Of a stretch of DNA of 64,000 nt, positions 27,816 through 31,392 are shown one piece after another. The position numbers were made by a program, and so were the translations under genes. Positions within the stretch are counted from its first letter, which is position 1. Each line of letters starts with the position of its first letter. This DNA comes from Longimicrobiaceae bacterium (GTDB lineage Bacteria > Gemmatimonadota > Gemmatimonadetes > Longimicrobiales > Longimicrobiaceae). The stretch is taken from the NCBI GenBank assembly GCA_036375715.1, contig DASVBS010000083.1:1-64000 (forward strand), in the 5' to 3' direction. Below the pieces are notes generated by a model. The model saw nothing but the letters and a program-made list of their open reading frames with translations. It had not been told where the DNA came from and ran no database searches.

Positions 27816-28502
27816 TCAGCTCAGCGAGATCGGGAGCAGAGCCTGGAAGGCGTTTCGTGCCCGGAAGAGCCGGCTCTTCACCGTCCCCACCGGCACGCCG
27901 ATCGCCTCGGAGATCTCCTCGTACGTCCGGTCCTCGACCTCCCGCATCACGAAGGGGATGCGGTGGTGATCCTCCAGCTGATCGATGGCCTCCTCGATCG
28001 CTTCACGCAGCTCACCCCGGTAGGCAAAGCGCTCCGGGTCCACGCTGTCACTCTCGAACTCGACCGGTCGGGGCGCCGTGCCCTCGGCTCGCAGGTCGCT
28101 GAACGCCGTCTCGCGCCTGCGGGAGCGATTACGGTACTCGTTCTTGAGCAGATTGCTCGCGATCGTGTAGATCCAGGTCGAGAACTTCCGCCCGGAGTCA
28201 TAGCGCTCGCGCGCGCGATGCACGCGCAGGAAGGTGTCCTGGGCCAGATCCTGCACGCGCTCTTCGTCCTTTAGCCGCTTGAACAGGAACCCTTTGATGA
28301 GCGGCTCGTATCGGTTTACCAGGTTTGTGAATGCCTCATGGTCTCCCTCCTGGTAGAGCTCGAAGAGCTCCTCGTCCGGGAGACCGCTGTAATCGACGGG
28401 ATCCGCCTCGGCCGGGACGGGCGCTACGGTCCCTGCCCCCGAGCTATGCTCGAGCACGGGCGCGACCGCCGTCGTCGAATAGCGCCGGAGTGTAGTAGTC
28501 AT
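27816..28502 (-). CDS. ECF RNA polymerase sigma factor
   Basis: A 228-residue sigma factor. A 45-residue disordered N-terminus precedes region 2 (LFELYQEGDHEAFTNLVNRYEPLIKGFLFKRL...QDLAQDTFLRVHRARERYDSGRKFSTWIYTIASNLLKNEYR) and region 4 (LEDHHRIPFVMREVEDRTYEEISEAIGVPVGTVKSRLFRARNAFQ). It resembles stress-type ECF factors. No anti-sigma gene is adjacent. Its promoter probably lies in the AT-rich stretch 28530-28610, divergent from the met operon. Confidence 0.93.
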   Translation of the reverse strand: MTTTLRRYSTTAVAPVLEHSSGAGTVAPVPAEADPVDYSGLPDEELFELYQEGDHEAFTNLVNRYEPLIKGFLFKRLKDEERVQDLAQDTFLRVHRARERYDSGRKFSTWIYTIASNLLKNEYRNRSRRRETAFSDLRAEGTAPRPVEFESDSVDPERFAYRGELREAIEEAIDQLEDHHRIPFVMREVEDRTYEEISEAIGVPVGTVKSRLFRARNAFQALLPISLS

Positions 28503-28653
28503 GGATACAATCTAAGCAAAAGTGCCCCGGAAAGCCACCTCCGCGGGCACTCTTAATGACATCTTAACCAATTTACTTACATACGTTTACCCCGAAACAT
28601 CCCAAAGTTCCGACCCCCCGGCCGATCTCTGGCCTCGGTGCGGCGATTGCTCC

Positions 28654-28682
28654 TTGACGGTTCGAGGAGGCCCCGTTAGACT
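28654..28682 (+). promoter_or_regulatory. Promoter of the metY-metX operon
   Basis: TTGACG at 28654-28659, a 17-base spacer, then TAGACT at 28677-28682. Transcription should start near 28689, about ten bases before the SAM-II-like element. Confidence 0.65.
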
Positions 28683-28699
28683 AGCCGGTGCGCCTTGCG

Positions 28700-28750
28700 C
28701 CGCGGCGATTTGTAGCGATTGCTCCGCGTAATAAATGTGCTAAACCGCGG
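28700..28750 (+). ncRNA. SAM-II-class riboswitch upstream of metY
   Basis: The segment matches the SAM-II aptamer blocks in order. P1 5' strand is CGCGG (28701-28705), then GATTT (28707-28711), ATTGC (28718-28722), P1 3' strand CCGCG (28724-28728), and CGTAATAAATGTGCTAAA (28727-28744). Five base pairs form P1. The pseudoknot helix is short here: GCG 28715-28717 can pair with CGC 28746-28748, or TAGC with GCTA at 28739-28742. SAM-II aptamers bind S-adenosylmethionine and repress methionine genes. The element lies between a promoter and a terminator hairpin, directly before metY and metX, which fits that role. Confidence 0.82.
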
Positions 28751-28751
28751 G

Positions 28752-28782
28752 GGGGTCCCGCGCGGTCGCTGCGCGGGACCCC
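28752..28782 (+). terminator. Terminator hairpin in the met leader
   Basis: A perfect 12-base-pair stem (28752-28763 with 28771-28782) and a 7-base loop, followed by TTTCCTGCTT. It begins one base after the SAM-II-like element and 213 bases before the metY ATG, so it is well placed as the expression platform. The CCGCGG at 28745-28750 between the two could join either structure. Confidence 0.7.
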
Positions 28783-28977
28783 TTTCCTGCTTAGCCGTCG
28801 AGCCCGAAAGGGCGCCCGCGCACCCGCTGGACACGTCGGTCCGCGCCTCACCGCCCGGTCCAAGGCGATCCTTCCGCAGGAGAGCTGGTGGCGTGCGCGT
28901 CGATCCGCACGACGGTCGCTGCGACCCGATCGCCCGGCCTCTCCGCTCCGAGCAGGTCGGGCATTTCCTTTACCTAG

Positions 28978-30318
<1,341 letters not shown>

Positions 30319-30396: not shown

Positions 30397-31392
30397 ATGA
30401 GCGGGAGAACACTCCGGACCCACCATCTGCCCGAGTTCCGCCTGGAATCGGGCGAGGTGCTCACGGAGGTCGTGCAGGCATACCACCTGGACGGCGAGAT
30501 CAACGCGTCGCGCGACAACCTCGTCATCGTCTTCCATGCCCTCACGGGCTCGGCCGATGCCGTGGGTGACTGGTGGAGCGACGTGTTCGGGCCCGGCCGG
30601 GCGATCGACACCCACCGGTATGCCGTGCTGTGCACGAATCTTCTCGGCTCCTGCTACGGTACGACCTTCCGTCGGCCCGAGCCGGGACGCCGACCCCTGA
30701 TCACCCCGCGCGACCAGGCGCGGCTGATCCACGCGCTCGTCGAGGAGTTGGGCATTCGCTCCGTGGCGCTCACGGCGGGGGGGTCGCTGGGAGGGATGGT
30801 GGGGCTCGAGTTTGCCGCTTCCTATCCCGAGCTCACCCGGACCTCAGTGATCTTCGCCGCTCCGGCGGCGCACACCGCCGCGGCGATCGGCTGGAATCAC
30901 ATCCAGCGGCAGGCAATCGCCCTCGGAAGCGAGCAGGGGCTGGCCGTGGCCCGGATGGTCGGGATGATGACCTACCGAACGGCGGTGGAGTTCCAGGAGC
31001 GGTTCGGTCGGGAACGCGGGCCGAACGGCTTCCAGGTCGAGTCGTATCTCAACCACCAGGGGGAGAAGCTCGTGAAGCGCTTCGACCCGGAGAGCTACCT
31101 GATGCTGATGGACGCCATGGACGCGCACGACGTGGGGCGCGGACGCGGCGGCTTCGTCGAAGCCCTGCGCGCGGTTCGCGGCAGGTTGATCGGGGTCGGC
31201 ATCCCCGGAGACATCCTCTACTCGGATGAGGACGTACGAGCCTGGACCGATCCCGTCGGCGCGGAGTACCGGCAAATCGACTCGATTCACGGACACGACG
31301 CCTTCCTCATCGAGGTGGACCAGGTGGCAGCGATCCTGGCAGACGCCCTCGAGGAAGCGACCCCTTCGGCCCGTCTGGCGACCGGTGCCTGA
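30397..31392 (+). CDS. metX: Homoserine O-acetyltransferase (MetX family)
   Basis: A 331-residue alpha/beta hydrolase. Family motifs are VIVFHALTGSADA, NLLGSCYGTT, nucleophile elbow GGSLGGMVGLEFA (Ser), catalytic Asp in IPGDILYSDEDV and His in GHDAFLIEV. It transfers an acetyl group from acetyl-CoA to homoserine, supplying MetY. The sequence is a little shorter than many MetX proteins, and acyl or substrate preference cannot be settled from these residues. It follows metY by 78 bases and overlaps the next gene. Confidence 0.9.
   Translation: MSGRTLRTHHLPEFRLESGEVLTEVVQAYHLDGEINASRDNLVIVFHALTGSADAVGDWWSDVFGPGRAIDTHRYAVLCTNLLGSCYGTTFRRPEPGRRPLITPRDQARLIHALVEELGIRSVALTAGGSLGGMVGLEFAASYPELTRTSVIFAAPAAHTAAAIGWNHIQRQAIALGSEQGLAVARMVGMMTYRTAVEFQERFGRERGPNGFQVESYLNHQGEKLVKRFDPESYLMLMDAMDAHDVGRGRGGFVEALRAVRGRLIGVGIPGDILYSDEDVRAWTDPVGAEYRQIDSIHGHDAFLIEVDQVAAILADALEEATPSARLATGA

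What the first reader, a model, noticed from the sequence alone, without database searches (positions are those of the whole stretch)
28654..28782. SAM-II-class riboswitch with terminator before metY-metX outside alphaproteobacteria
Promoter, SAM-II-like aptamer blocks (P1 CGCGG/CCGCG, GATTT, ATTGC, CGTAATAAATGTGCTAAA) and a 12-bp terminator stem follow each other within 130 bases and precede metY and metX. This class is known mainly from alphaproteobacteria. Here a terminator hairpin, rather than only the ribosome site, looks like the expression platform. The pseudoknot helix is unusually short.
Basis: partly seen in the sequence, partly recalled or inferred. Interest (0 to 1): 0.85.

Follow-up and report, generated by a model that had tools for sequence, protein, structure and literature searches.

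The report
SAM-II riboswitch-terminator before metY-metX, Gemmatimonadota
The leader of two methionine-making genes in a Gemmatimonadota bacterium carries a genuine SAM-II-type RNA sensor that very probably stops transcription when S-adenosylmethionine is plentiful; it belongs to a known class but to a lineage that the standard Rfam models miss at their cut-offs.

Summary
Window 28696-28751 holds a SAM-II aptamer with every nucleotide of the known SAM pocket. A promoter precedes it and a strong GC-rich hairpin follows, about 210 nt before metY-metX. It scores only 20.1 bits with Rfam RF00521 and 15.7 with RF01726, both below gathering, but a covariance model built from relatives only, without this genome, finds it at 72 bits, E 1.5e-17. 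P1 and a 3-bp pseudoknot helix P2 show compensatory changes. The genome is Gemmatimonadota and has a second copy before metK; relatives carry the same type mostly before metK or metX.

The new mechanistic point: the 3' strand of P2 (CCGC) is complementary to the loop-side half of the terminator's 5' arm (GCGG). This antiterminator folds in 25 of 26 loci, with compensated changes. SAM should hold that strand in P2 and so let the terminator form.

SAM-II outside alphaproteobacteria, and SAM-II with terminators, are already published, so the headline novelty fails; the short P2 is normal for this subgroup. I call it a new, Rfam-missed member of a known class with a testable switch. Ligand binding and termination are inferred, not shown.

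The parts
28654..28682 (+). sigma-70-like promoter (TTGACG, 17 nt, TAGACT); transcript start expected about 28688-28690
   Evidence: consensus scan, 9/12, 0.1 expected in shuffles; start site inferred
28701..28728 (+). P1 helix: CGCGG 28701-28705 with CCGCG 28724-28728
   Evidence: 100% paired in 20 relatives, 3 of 5 pairs with two-sided changes
28707..28711 (+). GAUUU: third strand of the SAM-II triplex (U10-U12 equivalents)
   Evidence: alignment to RF00521/RF01726; roles from SAM-V/SAM-II structures (PMC6061858)
28715..28717 (+). 5' strand of pseudoknot P2 (GCG)
   Evidence: covariation over 41 distinct P2 combinations and within Gemmatimonadota
28718..28722 (+). AUUGC: pocket strand (A19, U20, U21 equivalents)
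   Evidence: invariant in 20 Gemmatimonadota relatives
28739..28744 (+). GCUAAA: pocket strand (U44, A45, A46, A47 equivalents)
   Evidence: invariant in 20 Gemmatimonadota relatives
28746..28748 (+). 3' strand of P2 (CGC); the proposed switching strand shared with the antiterminator
28744..28766 (+). antiterminator hairpin ACCGCG-G-GGG/CCC-G-CGCGGU, mutually exclusive with P2 and with the terminator
   Evidence: folds at -16.6 kcal/mol, z -2.4; same hairpin in 25 of 26 loci
28750..28785 (+). terminator-like hairpin (12 Watson-Crick pairs plus wobbles) followed by UUUCCU
   Evidence: -34 kcal/mol, z about -5; long hairpin in 23 of 26 related loci
28983..28987 (+). AGGAG ribosome-binding site of metY, about 200 nt after the terminator
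   Evidence: sequence
28996..30318 (+). metY, O-acetylhomoserine aminocarboxypropyltransferase (440 aa)
   Evidence: TIGR01326 653.9 bits, cut-off 495.1
30397..31392 (+). metX-like homoserine O-acyltransferase (331 aa)
   Evidence: TIGR01392 E 1.2e-87 over positions 3-350, though below that model's curated cut-off

Best explanation
This is a SAM-II riboswitch controlling metY-metX by premature transcription termination. When SAM is scarce, the 3' strand of pseudoknot helix P2 (ACCGC, 28744-28748) pairs, as soon as it is transcribed, with GCGGU at 28762-28766. That makes an antiterminator hairpin which occupies the 5' arm of the terminator, and RNA polymerase reads on into metYX. When SAM is abundant, it locks GAUUU, AUUGC and GCUAAA into the SAM-II triplex and holds the same strand in P2 (28715-28717/28746-28748). 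The antiterminator cannot form, the 28750-28785 hairpin does, and transcription stops. Shown: sequence, homology, covariation of P1 and P2, conservation of the antiterminator and of the terminator-like hairpin. Inferred: SAM as ligand, actual termination, OFF direction.
For: Full-length hits to RF00521 and RF01726, weak but in the right place and order. R2 model made without this genome: 72 bits, E 1.5e-17. All 20 same-family genomes have RF00521-like hits; 113 of 395 phylum genomes match R1. P1/P2 pairing 97.5%, covariation score above all 500 shuffles. P2 across 41 combinations: 125 pairs, shuffle mean 103.7, maximum 121. Downstream genes are metYX here and metK or metX in most relatives. 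Antiterminator in 25/26 loci, with compensated changes such as GCGC/GCGC in L172 and L174, CGAA/UUCG, CGAG/CUCG, CCGGG/CCCGG; native halves pair better than swapped halves, 3/10000 permutations as good. At transcript ends 28767-28770 the minimum-energy fold contains exactly this antiterminator. No SAM-I in the genome.
Against: Score is below the gathering cut-off of both Rfam families. The U-tract is short (UUUCCU), and the strict terminator scan missed the hairpin. Once the 3' arm is made, the terminator (-34) is far more stable than the antiterminator (-17), so control must be kinetic. The permutation tests ignore relatedness. CCGC is nearly invariant, so much of the antiterminator support comes from the inner helix. 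No ligand or expression data.
Confidence: 0.8

Rival explanations
1. The aptamer is a true SAM-II sensor but acts mainly on translation or RNA stability; the hairpin is a constitutive or weak terminator (as at Sinorhizobium metA, where a terminator lies after a translational SAM-II).
For: Weak U-tract; the Sinorhizobium metA case in PMC9373788; one relative, L038, has the aptamer with no proper terminator and a start codon close by.
Against: The ribosome site is about 200 nt beyond the hairpin. The P2-strand antiterminator is kept in 25 of 26 loci.
Confidence: 0.1
2. A SAM-II-fold variant that senses a related metabolite rather than SAM.
For: Some Gemmatimonadota relatives change pocket or near-pocket letters (GAGUU, GCUUU), so the pocket is not frozen in the phylum.
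Against: The window keeps every pocket letter (U10, U11, U12, A19, U20, U21, U44, A45, A46, A47 equivalents). Targets in this genome are metYX and metK, and even several GAGUU forms precede metK.
Confidence: 0.05
3. A chance or decayed resemblance beside an ordinary upstream terminator.
For: Sub-threshold Rfam scores.
Against: 72 bits with a model that never saw it, and a second intact copy before metK in the same genome.
Confidence: 0.02

Closest known systems
SAM-II riboswitch, Rfam RF00521 (SAM_alpha)
   Same: P1, GAUUU third strand, UUGC and GCUAAA pocket strands, pseudoknot P2, methionine genes, terminator after P2
   Different: 20.1 bits, under the 36-bit cut-off; P2 is 3 bp with one bulged C, where about 60% of SAM-II riboswitches have a 5-bp P2a (PMC6061858); letter before UUGC is A
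SAM-II long loops, Rfam RF01726 (Bacteroidetes, marine)
   Same: AUUGC/GCUAAA layout with one bulged base and 3-bp P2; one core pattern retrieves both groups
   Different: 15.7 bits, under the 44-bit cut-off; GC-rich P1 with shorter loops; a strong terminator-like hairpin, which the Bacteroidota matches lack
Sinorhizobium meliloti metZ SAM-II riboswitch (PMC9373788)
   Same: SAM-II aptamer followed by an intrinsic terminator, predicted SAM-induced termination
   Different: Alphaproteobacterium; details of its antiterminator were not available to compare
SAM-V riboswitch, Rfam RF01826
   Same: Nearly identical SAM pocket and H-type pseudoknot (PMC6061858)
   Different: No RF01826 match here at E up to 5; SAM-V is translational

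Membership tests
SAM-II class (RF00521 / RF01726) | P1 stem enclosing the GAUUU...UUGC loop | tested here: met
   P1 100% paired over 20 relatives with two-sided changes at 3 of 5 pairs
SAM-II class (RF00521 / RF01726) | Pocket letters GAUUU, AUUGC, GCUAAA | tested here: met
   All present in the window; pocket roles in PMC6061858
SAM-II class (RF00521 / RF01726) | Pseudoknot P2 supported by covariation | tested here: met
   3 bp, fourth pair not supported
SAM-II class (RF00521 / RF01726) | Located before methionine/SAM genes | tested here: met
   metY-metX here, metK at the second copy
SAM-II class (RF00521 / RF01726) | Binds SAM and rejects SAH | not testable with these tools
   Needs in-line probing or calorimetry
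Rfam RF00521 as curated | Score at or above 36 bits | tested here: not met
   20.1 bits
Rfam RF01726 as curated | Score at or above 44 bits | tested here: not met
   15.7 bits
SAM-V (RF01826) | Covariance match to RF01826 | tested here: not met
   No match at E up to 5
Intrinsic (Rho-independent) terminator | GC-rich hairpin followed by a U-run | tested here: inconclusive
   Hairpin strong; U-run only UUUCCU, and the strict scan did not list it

The most novel reading that the evidence does not exclude
Gemmatimonadota hold a separate SAM-II lineage between RF00521 and RF01726. In it the ligand-held pseudoknot strand is itself the antiterminator strand, and the aptamer-terminator unit is used as a portable cassette, including in a phage and before genes outside methionine metabolism, with pocket variants that may have shifted specificity.
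Probability: 0.3. Interest if true: 0.55.

Novelty: new member of a known kind. Interest (0 to 1): 0.4.

Why it matters
It extends SAM-II to a phylum where current curated models miss most of this subtype, so annotation there is incomplete. It also gives a precise, covariation-backed wiring diagram (P2 strand versus antiterminator) for SAM-II transcription control. In 2007 that mechanism was called not yet experimentally established (PMC2258182), and the metZ switch of Sinorhizobium is described as a prediction with supporting expression data (PMC9373788).

Tried and rejected
Gathering-threshold Rfam scan of the window: no hit at all, so class membership had to rest on relatives. SAM-V: rejected, no match. 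A SAM-I switch elsewhere in the genome: none. A metH-type SAM-II like that of sister genomes in the window's genome: not found with one pattern. Translation control as the main mode: unlikely, because the ribosome site is about 200 nt away. A fourth P2 pair: rejected, 19 of 41 against 18.3 in shuffles. L056, L127, L128 and L154 were set aside by eye as probable chance pattern matches; L085 contains a gathering-level SAM-V hit just downstream, and L085, L114, L140 and L141 were left out of the P2 set without further study. Literature searches pairing SAM-II with Gemmatimonadota found nothing, but the library is partial.

Full report
What is there. Window 28654-28785 reads, in order, promoter (TTGACG-17-TAGACT), SAM-II aptamer, GC-rich hairpin and UUUCCU. 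A stretch of about 210 nt then leads to AGGAG-metY at 28996, followed by metX at 30397. The promoter is the only sigma-70-like site in 28500-29000, with 0.1 expected by chance. metY passes TIGR01326. metX is clearly MetX-like but below the curated cut-off of its best model, and is short at 331 aa.

Is it SAM-II? Rfam at gathering threshold finds nothing in the whole window. With relaxed thresholds the locus is a full-length match to RF00521 (20.1 bits, E 0.03 for 501 nt) and to RF01726 (15.7 bits). Across the window's whole genome the RF00521 match is the only one at E below 1, yet four to ten of 14 control genomes also ring at such loose levels, so Rfam alone would not settle it. Relatives do. 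All 20 genomes of the same family carry RF00521-like elements. A model built from 20 relatives, with neither copy of this genome, scores the window element 72 bits, E 1.5e-17, and a second copy at G000:C79:12486-12541 scores 72.5 bits. An open reading frame of 381 aa starts 127 nt after the GCTAAA of that second copy; read by eye it is S-adenosylmethionine synthetase, metK.

Taxon. The window is therefore Gemmatimonadota, by inference.

Distribution. A core pattern with gaps gave 106 genome records: mostly Bacteroidota, then Gemmatimonadota, Nitrosomonas, a few others and some chance hits. The six Bacteroidota records tested pass RF01726 at gathering level. Of six named Gemmatimonadota records only L082 passes a threshold (RF00521, 42.8 bits). 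A further relaxed scan of 20 Gemmatimonadota loci gave about 20-36 bits for most aptamers that were detected at all. In a phylum draw 113 of 395 genomes matched model R1 at E <= 0.001, including more RF00521-like forms at lower score.

Structure. P1 and P2 were counted on the 20-sequence alignment: 97.5% of cells paired, covariation score 0.216 against 0.086 in shuffles, and a collapse when the partner is slid. Because GCG/CGC is nearly fixed in Gemmatimonadota, P2 was also tested over 41 distinct P2 combinations from Gemmatimonadota, Bacteroidota, Nitrosomonas and Neomarinimicrobiota: 125 standard pairs, shuffle mean 103.7, maximum 121 of 2000, with only three pairs supported. Mapping to the SAM-V/SAM-II structures (PMC6061858; the numbering transfer is mine), the window retains every pocket letter: U10/U44 for the adenine, U11-A45-U21 for the sulfonium, U12-A46-U20, and A19/A47 for the amino-acid end.

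Platform. The hairpin is very stable (-34 kcal/mol; 0 of 200 shuffles). In 26 Gemmatimonadota loci a stem of at least 10 pairs was found in 23, whereas the Bacteroidota matches with a long stem had none more stable than about -7 kcal/mol (that script's second group also contains other Gemmatimonadota and Nitrosomonas, which do have hairpins). The key finding is a third hairpin. In 25 of 26 loci the segment from the end of the aptamer to the end of the terminator's 5' arm folds so that the P2 3' strand pairs inside, or at the edge of, that 5' arm. The letters change in step: CCGC/GCGG, GCGC/GCGC (L172, L174), CCG/CGG when P2 itself changes (L181), and inner helices CGAA/UUCG, CGAG/CUCG, CGGG/CCCG, GUGGGA/UCCCGU. 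Native halves pair better than halves swapped between loci (-16.0 vs -14.5 kcal/mol; 3 of 10000 permutations as good). Relatedness inflates this test. Stepwise folding of the window leader puts exactly this antiterminator in the minimum-energy structure when the transcript end is at 28767-28770, and the terminator takes over as its 3' arm emerges. The energies ignore the pseudoknot and SAM.

Mechanism. SAM holds CCGC in P2, so the antiterminator is lost and termination follows: an OFF switch. Its direction matches the biosynthetic targets and published SAM-II behaviour. Termination itself, SAM binding and the kinetics are inferred. The weakest link is the U-tract.

Comparison with the literature. 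Corbino 2005 (PMC1273637) already noted a promoter just before P1, frequent terminators, and occurrences in other proteobacteria and Bacteroides. Barrick and Breaker 2007 (PMC2258182) found terminators to be the usual SAM-II platform in alpha- and betaproteobacteria. RF01726 covers Bacteroidetes (PMC2864571). Sinorhizobium metZ is predicted to work by termination (PMC9373788). No held paper mentions SAM-II together with Gemmatimonadota. The verdict is a real, probably functional SAM-II riboswitch of a lineage under-detected by Rfam, with known class and known platform type, and a well-supported specific switching strand.

Noticed in passing
G000:C79:12488-12536 (L186): A second SAM-II element of the same type with its own antiterminator/terminator precedes metK in the window's genome.
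   Followed up: yes
L153:6442-6482 (-) and L155:6693-6733 (+): The same aptamer-terminator unit lies on IMG/VR contigs; L153 also encodes an SU10-type portal and major capsid protein. It points against the structural genes, toward a 72-aa ORF. A phage-borne SAM-II switch with no methionine gene seen.
   Followed up: partly
L163, L187, L165, L169, L170, L172, L174 (GAGUU); L179, L180, L182 (GCUUU): The otherwise universal GAUUU is changed; in GAGUU it is the letter facing U44 beside the SAM adenine. Several GAGUU forms still precede metK. Possible altered affinity or specificity.
   Followed up: partly
L179:1495-1713; also L180, L182, L191; L148: Two SAM-II aptamers in tandem, the first with a terminator, precede a MoxR-like AAA ATPase. 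A homologous ATPase follows a SAM-II in a Neomarinimicrobiota contig (L148). Tandem SAM-II is known (PMC9481103), but this target looks unusual.
   Followed up: partly
L002, L004-L007, L012, L032, L193, L194, L199: Other Gemmatimonadota SAM-IIs show GCCGCC on the P2 5' side complementary to GGCGGC in the terminator 5' arm, suggesting a different antiterminator wiring.
   Followed up: partly
L011, L017, L023, L040 and similar: Same-family genomes carry another SAM-II form before metH, with a long GAGUCGGG/CCCGCACUC hairpin that overlaps P2; some have AAUUU in place of GAUUU.
   Followed up: no
L038, L187, L189 (Cys-rich small proteins), L045 (ATP-grasp-like protein by eye): SAM-II elements before genes not obviously linked to methionine; L038 lacks the antiterminator and a proper terminator.
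   Followed up: no
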